In this document: positions 5,614-56,753 of the stretch, piece after piece
How positions within the stretch are numbered: the stretch's first letter is position 1
Layout: the number at the start of each line of letters is the position of its first letter
Source of the DNA: Branchipolynoe longqiensis
Taxonomy: Eukaryota; Annelida; Polychaeta; Phyllodocida; Polynoidae
Direction of reading: 5' to 3'
Assembly: GCA_030323885.1 (NCBI GenBank)
Contig: CM059196.1
Location: 35,442,481-35,506,480, forward strand
Length of the DNA stretch: 64,000 nt
The notes under the pieces: model-generated
Told to the model about the DNA's origin: nothing
What the model saw: only the letters and a program-made list of their open reading frames with translations
Databases searched by the model: none
Program-made: the position numbers and the translations under genes

Positions 5614-6114
5614 GTAGTGGTCTGCACTGACCTCTCAGGCAAGTAACCACATAGACAGGTAGGCATGGGGAGTGTGTTGATATCAGGGAGCCTAGGTGGT
5701 GTAATGGTTAGCACACTGGCCCGGAATGCAAAGAGAAGTGGGTTCGAGTCCCACTCTAGGCACAATATTTCCCATTTTCATCACCCCCACGACACTGGTT
5801 GCCGTGACCATGATCCTATACAAGCTACGCGCTTGTATGTTGTAGAACCTACCCTGTGTATGTGTGGGTGCATTGCCTGTATGTATGTAATTGTAAGCAT
5901 TACAAGACTCTACAATTCCAGGGGGACGAGTGTAGTGGTCTGCACTGACCTCTCAGGCAAGTAACCACATAGACAGGTAGGCATGGGGAGTGTGTTGATA
6001 TCAGGGAGCCTAGGTGGTGTAATGGTTAGCACACTGGCCCGGAATGCAAAGAGATGTGGGTTCGAGTCCCGCTCTAGGCGCAGTATTTCCCATTTTCATC
6101 ACCCCCATGACAAT
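5614..6114 (+). mobile_element. Composite tRNA-derived SINE family B, head-linker-head dimer
   Basis: The unit begins GTAGTGGTCTGCACTGACC. A tRNA-like core follows, with A box GTGGTGTAATGGTTAGCAC, B box GGTTCGAGTCCC and acceptor-like arms GCCTAGG / TCTAGGC. The head ends at CACCCCCACGACA (~190 bp) and is followed by a 128-bp linker, then a second head that stops at exactly the same place. The period is 318 bp. Confidence 0.85.
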
Positions 6115-13555: not shown

Positions 13556-13898
13556 GGTGGTGTTGGAAGCTCAGGTGGTAGAGTGTCCACCTGTGAAAGT
13601 GAGGGTCATCCGATCGATCCTGCTCAGTGGACCTATTTGCAGTTTGGGCTTTTGGGCTATTTACCGTTCCAACCAGTGGTCCACAACTTGTTCAGCAAAG
13701 GTTGTGTGTGGTATGTGCTGTCCTGTCTGTGGGAAAATGCATATAAAAGACCCCTCACTGCTTATCGGAAAGAATAGCCTATGTGGTGGCAGTGGGTTAT
13801 AAATATGTCAGAATGACCAAAATATTATGTTTGACATCCAATAGCCGATGATAAAAATCAACGCGCTCGAGAGGCGTCGTTAAATAAAACAACCTTCT
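13556..13898 (+). mobile_element. tRNA-derived SINE family D
   Basis: Head AGCTCAGGTGGTAGAGTG, B-box-like CCGATCGATCCTGCTCAG, body CTGTCCTGTCTGTGGGAAA and end GTCGTTAAATAAAACAACC. This head, body and tail pattern is widespread in molluscan genomes. Confidence 0.82.
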
Positions 13899-40032: not shown

Positions 40033-40372
40033 GGAGCGGGATGTATCTCAGGTGGTAGAGGGTCCACCTGTGAAGGTGCGGGTCATCCGATCGATCCTGC
40101 TCAGTTAACAACACATTTGCAGTTTAGGTTATTTTCCGTTCCAACCTGTGGTCCATAACTGGTTCATCAAAGGCTGTGGTATCTGTCCTGTCTGTGAGAA
40201 AGTGCATATGAAAGACACCTTACTGCTTATCGGAAAGAGTACCCTTTGTGCTAGCAGCAGGTTTCCTCCAAAGAAATATGTCAGAATGACCATATCTTTG
40301 ATGTCCAATAGTCGATGATATGAAAATCAATGTGTTCTAGAGGCATTGTTAAATAAACAAGCTTTTTTTCAA
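40033..40372 (+). mobile_element. tRNA-derived SINE family D
   Basis: GGGATGTATCTCAGGTGG to GTTAAATAAACAAGC. AAGTATCA directly precedes and follows it (about 40023 and 40372), a probable target duplication. It is about 440 bp upstream of exon 2. Confidence 0.84.
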
Positions 40373-40811: not shown

Positions 40812-41054
40812 CTCGACAGTAAGAGTCTCGACTATGCCTCGAAGATTCTCGAGAAGGCTACAGAGCGTGTGGCCATCATCTCTGACATCAGCAACCGCGT
40901 CGACAGCGACATCATCACCGTCGCCATCCAGGGCACGTCCAACATCGTCGCGGCGGCGTCGCGGGTCAAGGTCAAGGCCGGCGACCAGAACGAGGCTGCC
41001 GTAACTAAGCCGGTGATGGAGCGCACAAGGTGGTCGATTCACAACCTCACACAG
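40812..41054 (+). CDS. Polycystin-1-like protein, internal exon 2 of 5 visible (REJ-to-GAIN helical region)
   Basis: This 81-codon phase-0 exon begins LDSKSLDYASKILEKATERV and ends SIHNLTQ, bounded by CTGTCTTGCAG and GTGAGT. Codons end mostly in C or G, unlike the surrounding repeats. The sequence is amphipathic and helical, with a central stretch of isoleucine, valine and alanine, as in the N-terminal helical part of a GAIN-type domain. One N-glycosylation sequon (NLT) lies near the end, consistent with an extracellular position. The acceptor is the last of four tandem units that each end in an acceptor-like sequence (40508-40811), so a longer alternative form is possible. Confidence in the exon is high; the domain name is by resemblance. 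Confidence 0.8.
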
Positions 41055-47738: not shown

Positions 47739-48014
47739 ACGGAGCTGAACCACACCGTTCTCGGGGAGGCGCCGAGAAAGCGCGAGACGGCGTCTCTGAC
47801 GACGTACGCCGGACGTTTCCGGACGTCAGACATCGCCACCGCGCACACTCCTCCCGACGCGCCCAACTTCCGGCTTCCCAGCAGCCTCAGCGCCATCCTG
47901 TCCAGACACCAGGTGACTGGGCGCCCTGGTAACCAGACCGACGATTGCTATGAGATGCACGTGGTGACCTACAAGCGCAATCCTTTCCTCTACGGCAAAG
48001 GCTTCCGTGACAGG
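47739..48014 (+). CDS. Polycystin-1-like protein, internal exon 3 of 5 visible (GAIN-type domain)
   Basis: This 92-codon phase-0 exon begins TELNHTVLGEAPRKRETASL and ends NPFLYGKGFRDR, between CTTGTTGCAG and GTAGGT. It has two sequons (NHT and NQT) and one cysteine in DDCYEMHVVTYKRNPF. The segment of a cysteine, a hydrophobic beta strand, then Y-x-x-NPF/Y is typical of polycystin-1 family proteins just before the strand that opens the GAIN beta-sandwich. The flank is a 22-bp minisatellite (47395-47738) on the 5' side and an inverted-repeat element (48134-48385) on the 3' side. Codons are strongly C/G-ending. Confidence 0.82.
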
Positions 48015-48133
48015 GTAGGTGTAGCTGATTTACTACTACTTGTTGTTTCTCACTTTTGTCTGTGTGGGTCTTTGGTATTGTGTTTTGTTGTAAATATTTA
48101 TTCTTCTGAGAAATATTGTTTCAAGGCTTATAC

Positions 48134-48385
48134 CCCCATCACACCAAACTAGTTCAGACTACGTTCTTGAAAATGTTGCTGAACGGACTCAAACTGTGTG
48201 CGAACGGAATGGACGTAGTGGCAACTTTGTACGGTCTTTTTATAAATGGAATGGACAGGCTAGAACCGAATGGTGCTCCAGAACTGTGAGCATGCTCACA
48301 ATTTTCTTGCAGCCACGTTCTACCCCGTCCACAATGCGTTTTAGAACATGGTCGGACGTTTTGAGAACTACTTTGGTGTGATGGG
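48134..48385. mobile_element. MITE with CCCATCACACCAAA termini
   Basis: CCCATCACACCAAACTAGTTC and GAACTACTTTGGTGTGATGGG are near-perfect inverted repeats 250 bp apart, about 120 bp downstream of exon 3. Confidence 0.8.
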
Positions 48386-48439
48386 AGTGTAAGGTAGTTG
48401 TCTCAAAGCCGTATATATAGCAAACACAGTTACTTACAA

Positions 48440-48955
48440 TCTTTGTACATAAGAAGGTCCACTAGAATGGTAATTAAACAATTATTCAGTGAAATCTAAT
48501 TGCAGTTTTGGAATGATAATTAGACATTTACTAAGGGAATTCATTGGAATGACAATTAAACAATTATTAAGTGGAATCTACTACAGCTCTTAGAGTGATA
48601 ATTGGACAAATATTAAGTGAAGTACATACAAATATATAGGAGTCATTGAAATAATAATTGCACAATTATAACGTGGAACATATATATACGAGATGTATTG
48701 CAAGAACAACTGGACAATTAGTAAGTAAAATGTACATTGGAATGGCAATTATACAATTATTAAATGAAATATATGAGTTATTGAAATAACCATTGAACAC
48801 TTATTTAGTGAAATACAGACAAGTTATTGTAATGACAATTAACCCATTATTAACTGAAATGTACACGAGATATTGGAATCACAAGTGTACAATTAGTAAT
48901 TGAAATATACAAAAGTTCTGAGAATGGAAATTAAACAATTATTAATTAAACTTAC
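48440..48955 (+). repeat. AT-rich degenerate tandem repeat, ~60 bp
   Basis: Units with GGAATGACAATTAAACAATT, ATTAAGTGAAAT and ACRAGTTATTG words. Confidence 0.78.
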
Positions 48956-50009
48956 AAGAGTGCAGTCCTACTTCAGATGGGTCAGGTAGCACTCATGGGA
49001 TGGGGAGGGGCAGAGTAGTCCTGATGCTTTTTTTGTAAATATAGTTTATTCATTGAATACAGTCTTTTGTCAGCGCCGTGGCACTGGTCTTCCAGCCATG
49101 TGACATTAAAGTTATTAACAATATATGCATATGTCATCTGATATTGTCAACAGCAGCTAGCTCAGTTCAGCTGAATTAACAATATTAATCATTCCAAGAC
49201 TTAGATATGGTATAGTTTGACAATTCACATATAATAAGATAGTAGTTATATGTTGTGTACATATATACTTAGATACATACATGTGTAATGATTAGACCGT
49301 TGCATTACGGAGTGGTTAGGTGCATAGTTAGGTGCATGTTATTGTTAGGGGGGGGGGGGGGGACCCGACAACAAAGTGAGTTGATGTGACATATTCCTGG
49401 TGATGGCCTGCTCAGGTAGGTGCAACTCAGCCGACAGCTTGAATGCACGATTCGTTGGTGCACTTTTGATTTGGGGAAGTTTGGCATTGCACATTGCCCT
49501 TAGGCGATCCGTCTAAATTGAATGCGCTAGCCGGTGAATATTTTAACATACATCTATTTTATATGCGCTTTAGATGGACAAAGCTTGTAGCTATTTATAA
49601 GTGTCTCTGTAGGCATACACTGTAGCAGGTAGTTGGAAAGTTATGTTGGTTGGTTATTGGAGTTTCACGTCCTGACAACACCTAAGGTCATATGAGGAAG
49701 GGGGGAAGTTATATTTAGTTGGCATACGCTAGTGATTATGAGATAGGTTACAATTTTTCAGCAAAGAGTTATGGACTACCTTTATGGGCTAGTTATTGTG
49801 GAATATTTGAAATTGCTTGAAATGTGTATATAGATATATATGTTCATAAACAAAACTACACTATGCTCAGATTCAATGAGTTATAGGCTTTCTCAAGAAA
49901 ATGGTTTGACAGGTATTGAATTAAAAATAAATGGACCTATTTCATATGACGTCAGCAAAGGTATGTAGGTCAGTGTGTGCGCTGCTTGGCTCCAGGATGA
50001 CACATTGTC
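48956..50009. other. Unique AT-rich intron DNA
   Basis: A G run at 49350-49362 and a SINE tail at 49648. No supported gene. Confidence 0.5.
49648..49706 (-). mobile_element. SINE family A 3' fragment
   Basis: GGTTGGTTATTGGAGTTTCA to CATATGAGGAAGGG, minus strand, in the intron between exons 3 and 4. Confidence 0.72.
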
Positions 50010-50640
50010 ACACTGCAAACTCAATGGCTATAAGTAATCTTCATAGAGAAAAGGTGAAATATCTCTAAAACCACAGCACTTAGAAACAAACTGCCTGGAA
50101 CACATATAGACAACATATTCACCAAAGGGATTATATTAAATTGATATGGTCAGGGTTCTGCATTTCTTTTAATTTTGAATAAAATTTACATATTGATCTG
50201 CGCGTATCGGCAAACTCAATGCAAACTCAATGGCTATGAGCAATCTTCATAGAGAAAAGGTGAAATATCTCTAAAACCACACCACGTAGAAACAAACTGC
50301 TTGGAACACATATAGAAAACATATTGAACGAACAGATTATCTCAAATTTATAAGGTTAGGGTTCTGCATTTCTATTAATTTTGAATCAAATTTACATATT
50401 GATCTGCGCGTATCGGCACACTCAATGCAGTGTCAATGGCCGTGAGCAATCTTCATAAAGAAAAACTGAAATAGCTCTAAAACTACACCACCTAGAAACA
50501 AACCGCTTGGAACACATCTAGAAAACATATTTGACGAACAGATTATATTAAATTGATCTGGTTAGGCTTCTGCATTTCTATTAATTTCGAACTGCGCGTA
50601 TCGGCAAACTCAATGACAGTGTGCATTCGTTCTGCAGCCA
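50010..50640 (+). repeat. 206-bp tandem repeat, three copies
   Basis: CTCAATGGCTATGAGCAATC, TCTCTAAAACCACACCAC and CTGCGCGTATCGGCA blocks repeat at exactly 206 bp (50021, 50227, 50433). The third copy is shortened. Confidence 0.93.
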
Positions 50641-51135
50641 AGCTGCGCGGGCATACACAATGTTTATATACATTGAAAGGGGTCTATATTAAAATAGTTT
50701 TTATTGAAGGATTGACAATGCTCTAATTCTATAGATAGAGATAAACAGATAAACAGATGATGTGTTTTATGCGCATGCGGTTTGTTTTTCTCAGTTCACT
50801 CCTGCCAATATTATTGATAGATTATCTTACACTATGGCATATTATTAATTGCTATGCTATGTAGTTGTGCTGATATCGTTGGCAATGCCTTGAAACCTGT
50901 ATAGTCAGAATAACAATTATATCGACGTAAGACTGGAACTGATCCAATAGCCCTGATTGCTGATTAAATAACGACCTTTAACAACAAATAGCATTATTAA
51001 TCAAAACAAGAAAGAGTCACTGTACATGATCAAAATTTTTTGTGTTAATAACAGAAACCATTTAGTGAACGCTGTGTCGCTAAAATATGGTGTTTTCGGA
51101 AATATGGAGTTTGAGATTCCCATGCCTCTCAGGTT

Positions 51136-51970
51136 TATATCATTGTCGTGGGGGTGATGAAAATGGGAAATACTGCGCCTAGAGCAGGACTCGAACCCAC
51201 ATCTCTTTGCATTCCGGGCCAGTGTGCTAACCCTTACACCACCTAGGCTCCCTGATATCAATACACTCCCCACGCCTACCTGTCTATGTGGTTACTTGCC
51301 TGAGAGGTCAGTGCAGACCACTACACTCGTCCCCCTGGAATTGTAAGTCTTGTAATGCTTACAATTACATACACACAGGCAATGCACTAACACATACATA
51401 CACAGGGTAGGTTCAACAACCATACAGCGCAAAGCTTGTACAGGATCCTGATCACGGCAACCAGTGTCGTGGGGGTGATGAAAATGGGAAATACTGCGCC
51501 TAGAGCGGGACTCGAACCCACATCTCTTTGCATTCCGGGCCAGTGTGCTAACCCTTACACCACCTAGGCTCCCTGATATCAATACACTCCCCACGCCTAC
51601 CTGTCTATGTGGTTACTTGCCTGAGAGGTCAGTGCAGACCACTACACTCGTCCCCCCTGGAATTGTAAGTCTTGTAATGCTTACAATTACATACACACAG
51701 GCAATGCACTAACACATACATACACAGGGTAGGTTCAACAACCATACAGCGCAAAGCTTGTACAGGATCCTGATCACGGCAACCAGTGTCGTGGGGGTGA
51801 TGAAAATGGGAAATACTGCGCCTAGAGCGGGACTCGAACCCACATCTCTTTGCATTCCGGGCCAGTGTGCTAACCCTTACACCACCTAGGCTCCCTGATA
51901 TCAATACACTCCCCACGCCTACCTGTCTATGTGGTTACTTGCCTGAGAGGTCAGTGCAGACCACTACATC
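51136..51970 (-). mobile_element. Composite SINE family B, trimer (head-linker-head-linker-head)
   Basis: Minus-strand array with period 321-322 bp: three tRNA-like heads and two linkers, nearly identical to each other. It ends at the same head boundary (TTGTCGTGGGGGTG) as the dimers at 5614 and 56263. Each head-linker keeps an open frame (MGSVLISGSLGGVRVSTLA) only because the copies are so similar. It lies in the intron before exon 4. Confidence 0.85.
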
Positions 51971-52077
51971 ATCATCAGTTTCACATCAGCTTTTATTTCC
52001 CTAGCGTCTCCTGGGCTTCAAACCCCATATCGGTCAATAACTGCTTACCACGAGCACCACATCTGCAGCATCTTATC

Positions 52078-52432
52078 TTAAAGTTTCATAATCCGATGGT
52101 TTTGATTTCTTTTCTATTTTCTGAGGTAAATATATTAGGTTGATCGTCAAAATCATCTTACTTTAGTTTGAAGTAACTTCTATTTTAAGTCGTTAATTTC
52201 TGAGATATTTGAAGTGTAAACATGCCAAATTAATGTTGGCGAGCATGCCAAAACGCTGACACCATCGGCTTCAGCAGTAACAGGTTCTATTAAATTGCTT
52301 CAGTATTCCCTTCTGTGTGGCAACAAATGTTTAATAAGGGCACTCGTATTTAAGTTGGATATGTAGAATCAAATCTAGGTCAGTGTTTTTGTTTTGAAAA
52401 TGTTACGCTTTCAACGGACTATGCAGCTTTAA
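52078..52432. mobile_element. TTAA-flanked MITE, 355 bp
   Basis: AGTTTCATAATCCGATGG and AACGGACTATGCAGCT ends between TTAA at 52078-52081 and 52429-52432, opposite orientation to the copy at 18326. It sits in the intron just before exon 4. Confidence 0.85.
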
Positions 52433-52571
52433 TGGTATCGAGTTGGCGATTATGTCGGTCGGTACTTTAATGCAGATTCAATCATGAAAATATTCTCCAT
52501 TAAAACGATGTCTGGGATTGGCATGGTGATGGTTTTGCAATGCATATATGCTGGTAGTTGTTAACAGGTTA

Positions 52572-52902
52572 GGAGTGGGATGTAACTCAGGCGGTAAAGT
52601 GTCAACGTGTGAAGGTGTCGGTCATCCTATCGATCCTGCTCAGTGGACCCATTTGCAGTTTCGGCTGTTTTCCATTCCAACCAGTGGTCCACAACTGGTT
52701 CATCATGGGTTGGGGTATGTGCTGTCCTGTCTGTGGGAAAGTGCATATTAAAGACCCATTGCTGCTTATCGAAAAGAGTAGCCTATGTGGCAGCAGCAGG
52801 TTTCCTCAAAAGAAATATATCAGAATGACTATATGTTTGAAGTCCAATAGCCGATGATGTGAAAATCAATGCGCTCTAGATTAAATTAAATAATATTTTC
52901 TT
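52572..52902 (+). mobile_element. SINE family D inserted over the exon 4 splice acceptor
   Basis: GGAGTGGGATGTAACTCAGG to AAATAATATTTTCTTT is a family D copy. The 14-bp direct repeat TTGTTAACAGGTTA lies at 52558-52571 and 52903-52916. The right copy is the intron end plus the first four bases of exon 4, so the target site was the acceptor itself. The SINE's AT/pyrimidine tail now supplies the polypyrimidine tract. Confidence 0.9.
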
Positions 52903-52912
52903 TTGTTAACAG

Positions 52913-53029
52913 GTTAATTCCCAGGTGGCGTCACTGTCGCTCTACTCCTGTGGAGGGAAGGAACTGATGGTCAACAATCTCCCTAGCAACGATCAGATCG
53001 CCATGGCCATTCCGCATGTCAATCCAAAG
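52913..53029 (+). CDS. Polycystin-1-like protein, internal exon 4 of 5 visible (GAIN beta-sandwich)
   Basis: This 39-codon phase-0 exon starts VNSQVASLSLYSCGGKELMV and ends AIPHVNPK, followed by GTAATA. It fits the conserved family pattern of S-x-V-x-SLSL, a short loop with K/E-L-x-V-x-NL, then a strand ending in IP. A cysteine (YSCGG) could pair with the one in the preceding exon. The acceptor TTGTTAACAG is part of a 14-bp duplication made by insertion of the SINE at 52572-52902, so the intron 3' end and the first four exon bases occur twice. The upstream copy would lead into an in-frame stop after five codons. Confidence 0.82.
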
Positions 53030-53394
53030 GTAATATAATAGTGCATGTACATGTTATCTCTATGATGCTCCATAATCCATTATGGAAATATAAATAATGT
53101 ACCATTCCCTTCTCAGTGTCCTCCATAGTTAGCTAATCGACATTCACTATCGGTGTATTATACACTATGGGATACAGTTCCCTATTTCGACACCGTGGCG
53201 CCACCTGTGAGTGGGGATTAAGCCAAACTACCGGAACTGCGATATCGAATTTTAACTTGTTATTCGATGAGGTATATGTTTTCCTGACAGAGAAATTATA
53301 TTTATCAAACAGTAAGTGTGACACTCTCATGGGTTTTCAATCTTCGCAGAATTGAAGCTTCATCTAACTTAGCCTACACAAATCCACATTTAAA

Positions 53395-53620
53395 TAACAT
53401 CTAGATATAGATGAAAACGACATATGGATAAAATCTAAATAAAGAAAGAAAATCTACATACAGATAAAATCGACATATATATGAAATCTACTTAAATATG
53501 AAAACCACGTATAGATAGGATCTACATACATTTAAAAAAAACCATCAACTTATGAAATCTACATAAAATAATACCTACATATAGATTAATTCTACATAAA
53601 GATAACATTAGCATGTATCT
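53395..53620 (+). repeat. AT-rich ATCTACATA-type repeat
   Basis: Units of AAATCTACATAYAGATAAAA, 20-30 bp, diverged. Confidence 0.75.
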
Positions 53621-53734: not shown

Positions 53735-54120
53735 TAGGACAGTGAGCAGGCGAGTGGTGGCGCCACCGTCGGAGCTGAGGCATAAGCATTAGATGAGTAG
53801 GTGAGGTTCCAGCACCCGATCACTGGTGTGTGGGTGCTAGGATAGTATAGTATTCCGTGTTATTATACTCGTATAATTCTTATACAGCATATATATGTAT
53901 GTATATATATATATATATATATATACATTCTCAGGTGCGAGTGACAATGTGCACCCCGGCAGTTCGGGTATGGGCCGGTGGTGGTGCCACCGGTCCCAGG
54001 ATGTAAGGAACCGAGCAAATACAATGCGAATAGTAATAAGTAACAATGGATAATAAATTAATAATAATAAATTCCCTTCCGTGCCTTTATACTCACATAA
54101 TACTTTTACATCACATGTTA
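53735..54120. mobile_element. Repeat K copy with central (TA)n
   Basis: GTGGTGGCGCCACCGTCGG, ACTCGTATAATTCTTATAC, a (TA)n run, GGTGGTGGTGCCACCGGTCC and AAATTCCCTTCCGTGCC follow the order seen at 10640-10935, with the two halves exchanged. Confidence 0.62.
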
Positions 54121-54844: not shown

Positions 54845-55270
54845 ATAATTATATACATGTGATGCATAAGGATTATGCAAGTATAAAGGCGCTCAAGGGA
54901 TGTTCCTTTATTTACTACCGTCCTGATATGACCTTAGATGTTGCTAGGACGTAAAACAACACCAAACAAACAAACAAACTTTATTTACTATTAATATATT
55001 ATTAATTTACTATTAAATAACCACTGCCACGCTGTGTACTACTCTATGGGTGCCCCACCACTATGACTGGTGGCGACACCACTCCTTCCGACTTCACCAG
55101 TGATGCGCATATTGTCACTCGCGCAATCGAATTTTTATATCATCTTAACCCACCATTTGTCTTGTCTCTTTACTATACTGGAGCATGCCCTCTATATGCT
55201 GTATAAGAATTATGCGAGTATAATAACACAGAATATCCCTCCTTTCCCTCATCACTCACTCAGCTCCATG
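54845..55270. mobile_element. Repeat K fragments upstream of exon 5
   Basis: TGATGCATAAGGATTATGC at 54861 and TAAGAATTATGCGAGTATAA at 55203 are copies of the recurrent repeat K palindromic motif. CTGGTGGCGACACCACTCC at 55070 matches its GC-rich palindrome. A SINE tail (54919-54980) separates the parts. Confidence 0.5.
54919..54980 (+). mobile_element. SINE family A 3' fragment
   Basis: CCGTCCTGATATGACCTTAG to CCAAACAAACAAACAAAC. Flanking text TTTATTTACTA is repeated at 54908 and 54980, a probable target duplication of about 11 bp. Confidence 0.82.
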
Positions 55271-55389
55271 GACTGGAGTCTGTCCTACTCATCTACCGCT
55301 CCAGCCTCCCCAACCCCAGCACACTCCCCAACCCCACCACCCCTCCACACTGTATCCGCCACTCACTGTACCGCTATTTCTTTCTGCAG

Positions 55390-55550
55390 GCCCGACCGAA
55401 GGTAGCCACGTTCAAGTTCCACAAACACACGATGCAAGTTCACCAGTTGAACGTCAGCCTTGACCCCACTGACCTCAGCTCCATCCACATCCTCATAGAA
55501 CTCGACCCGGTGCCCCAGGGGCGACTCTTCCCCATAGCCTTACTGCTACG
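55390..55550 (+). CDS. Polycystin-1-like protein, internal exon 5 of 5 visible (GAIN domain, continues outside)
   Basis: This 161-nt exon encodes 53 codons plus two bases (phase 2 at its end), between TTTCTTTCTGCAG and GTAAGTGAG. It starts ARPKVATFKFHKHTMQVHQL and ends with a hydrophobic strand, FPIALLLR. The arrangement (F-x-F-H-x-H, then L-x-V-x-L, a polar turn, a hydrophobic strand and A-L-L-L-R) matches the late GAIN part of polycystin-1-like proteins, upstream of the GPS cleavage motif. The GPS itself (HL/HF-T-type site with its cysteines), PLAT domain and transmembrane segments were not found downstream, so the gene runs past the window or through a long intron. Together the five exons make 854 coding nt over 37.3 kb. 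Confidence 0.8.
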
Positions 55551-56262: not shown

Positions 56263-56753
56263 GGGGGTGATGAAAATGGGAAATACTGCGCCTGGAGCGG
56301 GACTCGAACCCACATCTCTTTGCATTCCGGGCCAGTGTGCTAACCATTACACCACCTAGGCTCCCTGATATCAACAAACTCCCCACGCCTACCTGTCTAT
56401 GTGGTTACTTGCCTGAGAGGTAAGTGCAGACCACTACACTCGTCCCCCTGGAATTGTAAGTCTTGTAATGCTTACAATTACATACAGACAATGCACTAAC
56501 ACATACATACACAGGGTAGGTTCAACAACTATACAGCGCAAAGCTTGTACAGGATCCTGATCACGGCAACCAGTGTCGTGGGGGTGATGAAAATGGGAAA
56601 TACTGTGCCTAGAGTGGGACTCGAACCCACATCTCTTTGCATTCCGGGCCAGTGTGCTAACCATTACACCACCTAGGCTCCCTGATATCAACACACTCCC
56701 CACGCCTACCTGTCTATGTGGTTACTTGCCTGAGAGATAAGTGCAGACCACTA
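56263..56753 (-). mobile_element. Composite SINE family B, head-linker-head dimer
   Basis: Minus-strand copy with two tRNA-like heads (ACTCGAACCC B box, CTAACCATTACACCACC A box) and one linker. The truncated last head has the same boundary as the other loci. Confidence 0.85.

What the first reader, a model, noticed from the sequence alone, without database searches (positions are those of the whole stretch)
52558..52916. A SINE inserted exactly over a splice acceptor and duplicated it
The 14-bp direct repeat TTGTTAACAGGTTA flanks a family D SINE. The right copy (52903-52916) is the exon 4 acceptor plus the first four coding bases, so the target site was the intron/exon boundary itself. The left copy (52558-52571) is now a decoy acceptor. 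If used in phase 0 it reads GTT AGG AGT GGG ATG TAA, a stop at 52583. The right copy is preceded by the SINE's own AATATTTTCTTT tail, so the mobile element supplies the polypyrimidine tract of a conserved exon. This is a rare, cleanly readable case of a gene surviving an insertion into a splice site because the duplication rebuilt it.
Basis: partly seen in the sequence, partly recalled or inferred. Interest (0 to 1): 0.86.

Follow-up and report, generated by a model that had tools for sequence, protein, structure and literature searches.

The report
SINE that rebuilt a splice acceptor
A short mobile element (a SINE) sits exactly on an intron-exon boundary with the same 14 bases on both sides, so it apparently duplicated the splice site when it landed, and the copy beside the exon, now fronted by the element's own T-rich tail, likely still works as the splice site.

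Summary
TTGTTAACAGGTTA is exact at 52558-52571 and 52903-52916 and abuts both ends of a 331-nt element. The element is a high-copy SINE in a 1.85-Gb genome whose copies carry direct repeats of about 13 bp and T/C-rich tails. The right copy holds the exon 4 acceptor: a REJ/GPS-type gene elsewhere in the genome has a homologous exon starting at the same residue, in phase 0, behind an AG without a SINE. The left copy reads into TAA at 52583 but looks weak: pyrimidine fraction 0.50, with a TAG 10 nt upstream; the right copy has 0.75. The duplication supplies only the last ten intron bases and four exon bases; the pyrimidine tract and branch-point candidates come from the SINE tail. Among sampled copies with an AG close behind the tail, 17 of 26 look acceptor-grade, against 14-16% in matched controls, but the element's antisense end does equally well, 18 of 27. 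No RNA, empty site or orthologue was available, so splicing is inferred. Closest precedent: the canine merle SINE, also at an acceptor with a 15-bp duplication, but antisense.

The parts
52558..52571 (+). Left copy of the 14-bp target site; holds the displaced acceptor AG (52566-52567)
   Evidence: exact repeat; phase-0 reading VRSGM then stop
52555..52557 (+). TAG whose G lies 10 nt before the G of the left AG; a competing acceptor in the old context
   Evidence: sequence; reading LLTG then stop
52583..52585 (+). In-frame TAA if the left acceptor were used
52572..52902 (+). SINE copy, sense orientation, 7.9% from a 10-copy consensus
52880..52902 (+). SINE tail: A-rich stretch with TnA motifs, then pyrimidine tract; predicted branch-point region and tract of exon 4
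   Evidence: function inferred
52903..52916 (+). Right copy of the target site: last ten intron bases with AG 52911-52912 and first four bases of exon 4
52913..53029 (+). Exon 4, 117 nt, phase 0 to 0, VNSQVASLSLYSCGGKELMVNNLPSNDQIAMAIPHVNPK; donor GTAATA
   Evidence: homologous exon start in a REJ/GPS gene
47739..48014 (+). Exon 3, ends in phase 0 before GTAGGT
55390..55550 (+). Exon 5, starts in phase 0, donor GTAAGT
40812..41054 (+). Exon 2 of the host gene, donor GTGAGT
40033..40363 (+). Second copy of the SINE in the window
13566..13896 (+). Third copy of the SINE in the window (envelope from 13551)

Best explanation
A sense-oriented SINE apparently inserted by target-primed reverse transcription into the exon 4 acceptor, leaving the 14-bp site on both sides, and the exon-side copy is predicted to remain the working acceptor because the SINE tail in front of it would serve as branch-point region and pyrimidine tract. 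Shown by sequence: the exact duplicate, the element's ends, the family tail, the exon boundary and its match in a paralogue. Inferred: the order of events, the branch point and the actual splicing. The mechanism has two halves. The staggered cut copied the acceptor's last ten intron bases with its AG, and four exon bases, to both sides. The T/C-rich 3' end of this SINE family then stands where a pyrimidine tract must stand, behind an A-rich stretch (TTAAATTAAATAATA) free of AG. The left copy keeps its AG but has no good tract of its own and a TAG just upstream; if used, it would lead to a stop after five codons.
For: Exact 14-bp repeat abutting both element ends. Direct repeats found by script at 27 of 41 near-full-length family copies, mean 13 nt. 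Tail aligned with the family tail. Right acceptor: pyrimidine fraction 0.75 (12 of 16), run of nine, 31 nt free of AG; left: 0.50 (8 of 16), longest run two. TnA motifs at -19 to -29 only before the right AG. Exon 4 aligned without gaps from residue 1 with an exon of a REJ/GPS gene that starts behind an AG in phase 0, 0 of 5000 shuffles; a second REJ-type gene reads through the exon 3-exon 4 join in one exon.
Against: No RNA, empty site or orthologue seen. The paralogue's acceptor is itself weak (0.56), so splicing here may not need a strong tract and the left copy could work. Exons without a yTnAy match exist (exon 2), and neither exon 4 acceptor has one at a usual distance. The tblastn E-value of the paralogue was only 0.42. 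Alus in NF1 3' splice sites caused skipping. The open frame does not prove use.
Confidence: 0.77

Rival explanations
1. The insertion damaged the acceptor: exon 4 is now partly or wholly skipped, exon 3 joining exon 5 in frame, and the gene lives on with a shorter product.
For: Exon 4 is 117 nt, phase 0 to 0. Four of 14 Alus in NF1 that hit a 3' splice site caused skipping.
Against: The right acceptor has a pyrimidine fraction like those of exons 2, 3 and 5 (0.75 against 0.69, 0.75, 0.81). Exon 4 keeps an open frame and a GT donor, which is weak evidence.
Confidence: 0.12
2. Both acceptors are used: the left copy works as a regulated decoy that yields a stop-bearing transcript and lowers the dose of the protein, as the cryptic site does in merle dogs.
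For: The left AG is intact and identical over 14 of 14 bases, and leads to a stop. The paralogue manages with a tract of 0.56.
Against: Pyrimidine fraction 0.50, longest run two, TAG 10 nt upstream, no TnA between -38 and -4. Identity of the 14 bases needs no selection: 32% chance at 7.9% drift.
Confidence: 0.08
3. The gene is a decaying or dead copy, so that the insertion had no cost and no splice site was rescued.
For: Open frames of exons 3-5 are compatible with drift (36% at 7.9%). Few exons and no later domain were recognised by motif search up to 30 kb downstream; only REJ was sought genome-wide and it has no match in the window.
Against: No stop in exons 3-5 as joined; AG and GT at the junctions read. 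It is the only close copy in the assembly.
Confidence: 0.08

Closest known systems
Canine merle SINE at PMEL intron 10/exon 11 (PMC7349775; section 3.1 and passages read)
   Same: tRNA-derived SINE at an intron-exon boundary; target duplication of 15 bp that holds the original acceptor; T-rich stretch acting as pyrimidine tract.
   Different: Merle is antisense with a poly(T) at the far side, recent, with leaky use of a cryptic acceptor shown in RNA. Here the insertion is sense, the tract lies directly before the exon-side copy, and no RNA was seen.
Alu insertions into NF1 3' splice sites (PMC3219598; section 8 and passages read)
   Same: Retroposon inserted into the AG or pyrimidine tract of an acceptor.
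   Different: Poly(A)-tailed elements; result is exon skipping and disease, in de novo mutations.
Introners (PMC9860276; passages read)
   Same: Splice sites recruited from the target duplication of a mobile element.
   Different: Introners make a whole new intron inside an exon, mostly DNA-transposon-like with duplications of 3-9 bp; here a 4.9-kb intron with its own donor got a new 3' end.
Molluscan SINE superfamilies, MetaSINE and V-SINE (resemblance recalled; the MetaSINE paper is not held; a bivalve repeat paper, PMC10294476, seen in passages)
   Same: About 330 nt, dispersed, head that looks tRNA-like by eye, variable target duplications.
   Different: No named family was matched here.

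Membership tests
SINE retroposon | Short, dispersed, high copy number | tested here: met
   331 nt; 40 scored matches of 7619 first-look candidates
SINE retroposon | Target-site duplications of variable sequence at each copy | tested here: met
   27 of 41 copies by script, some of the imperfect ones doubtful
SINE retroposon | RNA polymerase III promoter head from tRNA, 7SL or 5S | tested here: inconclusive
   Head GGAGCGGGACGTAGCTCAGGCGGTAGAG looks like a tRNA A box (motif recalled); ARAGORN and Rfam call nothing inside the element
SINE retroposon | 3' end shared with a partner LINE | not tested
   No LINE was sought
Merle-type SINE at an acceptor | Target duplication contains the exon's acceptor | tested here: met
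   boundary supported
Merle-type SINE at an acceptor | Antisense orientation with poly(T) | tested here: not met
   Sense copy with TTTTCTTT tail
Merle-type SINE at an acceptor | Alternative acceptor use in RNA | not testable with these tools
   No RNA data
Introner | Element creates a new intron within an exon | tested here: not met
   Intron 3 runs 48015-52912 with a donor far outside the element; a paralogue has an acceptor at the same residue without the SINE, another has no intron there
Polycystin-type REJ/GAIN/GPS gene (host gene) | REJ domain | tested here: not met
   No Pfam match for the joined exons; none of the 21 REJ matches of the genome is in the window. The domain may lie in exons not found
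Polycystin-type REJ/GAIN/GPS gene (host gene) | Homology of exon 4 to a REJ/GPS gene | tested here: met
   Ungapped match from residue 1, 0 of 5000 shuffles (exons 4+5 together 1 of 5000); tblastn E only 0.42

The most novel reading that the evidence does not exclude
This SINE family carries a portable half of a 3' splice site. Its tail, TTAAATAAAACAAGCTTTACTTTT, is a ready branch-point region plus pyrimidine tract that lacks only an AG, and the target site supplies the AG. Copies can thus land on acceptors without breaking them, and elsewhere in introns they seed new acceptors; with tens of thousands of copies the family would be a standing source of repaired and new exon starts in this genome.
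Probability: 0.27. Interest if true: 0.7.

Novelty: new variant of a known kind. Interest (0 to 1): 0.48.

Why it matters
Insertions into splice sites are known mostly as disease mutations. A case in which the duplicate and the tail together make a new, apparently stronger acceptor shows how such a hit can be harmless, and ties the outcome to the kind of tail a retroposon carries. That gives a genome-wide test: SINEs with T-rich tails should sit on acceptors more often than SINEs with poly(A) tails.

Tried and rejected
Relatives: the protein search had 66 candidates and none at E up to 10 (the typed query lacked four residues at the exon 3-exon 4 join). Solved structures gave only chance-like matches. 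Pfam gave a single sub-threshold match to a 39-residue piece (PF04872, E 0.057, below its cut-off), taken as chance, and nothing for the joined exons; NCBIfam nothing. A SINE pattern had no exact match in viral contigs and six exact matches to a shorter pattern in prokaryote records, L001-L006, taken as chance and not examined.

A second case at an acceptor: L013 has a duplicate CCTCCTCTGCAG / CCTCCTTTGCAG that looks like an acceptor, but no long reading frame follows, so it is rejected as a coding case. Branch-point consensus yTnAy: exon 2 has no match, exon 3 one at -37, exon 5 one at -24, both exon 4 acceptors only one at -3, which is too close; so only the looser TnA is reported. Orientation-specific story: rejected as a claim, because the antisense end gives as many pyrimidine-rich AGs. 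Pseudogene test by stops: too weak to decide. Own control mended: the threshold 0.69 left out AGs with 11 of 16 pyrimidines, while searches counted them; one search recounts both sides with one rule, and the odds of the novel reading were lowered for that and for the antisense result.

Papers: ten searches. Six phrases for a duplicated splice acceptor gave 0 papers. A Pompe disease insertion (PMC8509548, passages) and a BLOC1S2 MIR/Alu exon (PMC6822395, passages) are TE-made splice sites of another kind.

Full report
What is there. The two copies of TTGTTAACAGGTTA are exact, at 52558-52571 and 52903-52916, and abut the two ends of a 331-nt element. Two further copies of the element lie in the window, at 40033 and about 13551. 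The genome that holds the window is an unnamed assembly of 1,850,408,144 bases in 1914 contigs; its first look gave 7619 candidate places for the element, of which 40 were scored and 40 matched, the window copy included. In 134 kb around the locus a consensus finds five matches, about four elements, which extrapolates very crudely to some 69,000 matches in the genome.

The family. Ten copies aligned with flanks (three of the window, seven of the genome) have the consensus start GGAGCGGGACGTAGCTCAGG and the consensus end GTTAAATAAAACAAACTTTTCTT. The window copy is 7.9% from this consensus, 26 of 331 positions; the nine others are 3.3 to 11% away. The genome copies are the best matches to the window copy, not a random sample. 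A script found a direct repeat at 27 of 41 near-full-length copies, mean 13 nt, 92% identical; two partial rows were left out, some of the longer imperfect pairs are doubtful, and it missed some that the eye accepts. The 14-bp repeat is thus typical of the family. By eye the head looks like a tRNA promoter box; neither ARAGORN nor Rfam calls a tRNA inside the element. The resemblance to molluscan SINEs is recalled and untested.

The host gene. Exons 2 to 5 were read from the sequence: 40812-41054, 47739-48014, 52913-53029, 55390-55550. Exons 3, 4 and 5 start in phase 0. Pfam, NCBIfam and solved structures name nothing credible, and a search of public proteins found no relative. I recalled a polycystin-like region and tested it inside the same genome. 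REJ, the domain of polycystins and the sea-urchin egg-jelly receptor (recalled), has 21 matches there, none in the window. I fetched 20 kb at and behind six of these places. One, on contig C7 at 3.52 Mb, has an exon that begins VRSNILGIKFRHDNGTIIKVNNLPEKQRITLMMP right behind an AG, with a GPS-like CVCNHLT about 2 kb on. It aligns without gaps to exon 4 from the first residue; none of 5000 shuffles of exon 4 did as well, one of 5000 for exons 4 and 5 together. The tblastn E-value alone was a modest 0.42. A second REJ-type gene, C7 at 52.96 Mb, reads TNPFVWDASSSFIKSGVLSL without a stop across a point that matches NPFLYGKGFRDR/VNSQVASL, our exon 3-exon 4 join (match by eye). The other four places gave nothing convincing. 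So the acceptor at 52912, phase 0, is supported as the gene's proper boundary.

The two acceptors. At -20 to -5 the right copy has 12 of 16 pyrimidines (0.75), a run of nine, and 31 nt free of AG. The left copy has 8 of 16 (0.50), a longest run of two, and a TAG ten bases before its AG. Exons 2, 3 and 5 have 0.69, 0.75 and 0.81. Of 1074 AGs between 38001 and 60000, 115 (10.7%) have at least 11 of 16 and 48 (4.5%) at least 12 of 16 (one search had printed the latter under the label 0.69). Branch-point-like TnA motifs stand at -19, -23, -24, -28 and -29 before the right AG, all in the SINE; before the left AG there is one at -38, then none until -4. From the left AG the frame reads VRSGM and TAA at 52583. 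The paralogue's acceptor has 0.56, so a weak tract may have been the ancestral state; or the left flank has decayed since the insertion. An orthologue would decide.

How it works. I infer target-primed reverse transcription: the duplicate carried ten intron bases with the AG, and four exon bases, to both sides. But the duplicate lacks a pyrimidine tract. The tract, and probably the branch point, now come from the SINE's tail. In front of this 14-mer, the tails of 16 copies that I picked for clean repeats, the window copy among them, would give a mean fraction of 0.75, and 13 of 16 would reach 11 of 16; a poly(A) tail would give 0.25; the antisense end of the same SINE would give 0.75. Of 41 rows with a readable 3' end, 26 have their first AG within 22 nt of the element's end; 17 of these 26 have at least 11 of 16 pyrimidines and 11 of 26 at least 12, the window copy included. 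Matched controls, the first AG within 22 nt behind any position, give 13.9% and 5.8% in the window region, 16.1% and 7.3% in the 39 fetched loci. The antisense side under the same limit gives 18 of 27 and 10 of 27. So the family's ends are acceptor-like on both sides by pyrimidine content; what sets the sense tail apart is its T-rich tract behind an A-rich stretch, and that this difference matters is inference.

What is known. The merle SINE of dogs is the nearest case: a tRNA-derived SINE at an intron-exon boundary, a 15-bp duplicate with the acceptor, poly(T) acting as pyrimidine tract, and leaky use of a cryptic acceptor (PMC7349775, section 3.1 read). In NF1, four of 14 Alus hit a 3' splice site and caused skipping (PMC3219598, section 8 read). 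Introners take splice sites from their target duplicates but make whole introns (PMC9860276, passages read). Six phrases for a duplicated acceptor found no paper; the library holds open-licence papers only.

How surprising. If the genome had about 175,000 acceptors with 12 usable positions each (both assumed), some 69,000 insertions would give about 80 such hits without selection; the inputs are rough. One such site is striking in a 64-kb window but need not be singular in the genome. Its worth lies in being cleanly readable, and in pointing to the tail as what makes the hit tolerable.

What is not shown. No RNA, no empty site, no orthologue. The protein search of the genome finds only the window's own three exons, so no second copy or haplotype of the locus was seen at that sensitivity; direct searches for the empty site did not complete. 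Open frames in exons 3-5 do not prove survival: 552 nt stay without a stop in 36% of simulations at 7.9% drift, 68% at 3%, substitutions only. The 14 left bases would stay unchanged in 32% of cases at 7.9%. Exon 4 could be skipped in frame.

Noticed in passing
window 51144-51968; also 5690-6081 and 56288-56678: Seven tRNA-Ser(GGA)-like sequences that pass the Rfam tRNA threshold; three of them sit in a 322-nt tandem repeat of 2.6 copies, 99% alike, directly upstream of the finding. They look like a tRNA-derived repeat rather than tRNA genes.
   Followed up: partly
window 50014-50591: Tandem repeat, 206-nt unit, 2.8 copies, 88% alike, in intron 3.
   Followed up: no
window 53777-53952 and 55107-55308: Long interrupted inverted repeat in intron 4 (arms up to 43 nt, 95% complementary, and further arms nearby), perhaps the ends of a mobile element.
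   Followed up: no
window 52919-52937 and 53192-53210: The start of exon 4 is 84% complementary over 19 nt to a stretch of intron 4, 254 nt apart; a stem there could hide the acceptor region, or be chance.
   Followed up: no
L013 1489-1500 and 1839-1850: Another SINE copy whose target duplicate, CCTCCTCTGCAG / CCTCCTTTGCAG, makes a very acceptor-like site with the tail (15 of 16 pyrimidines), without a long reading frame behind it.
   Followed up: partly
window 53380-53605: Degenerate 17-nt repeat (AAATCTACATATAGATA), about 13 copies, in intron 4.
   Followed up: no
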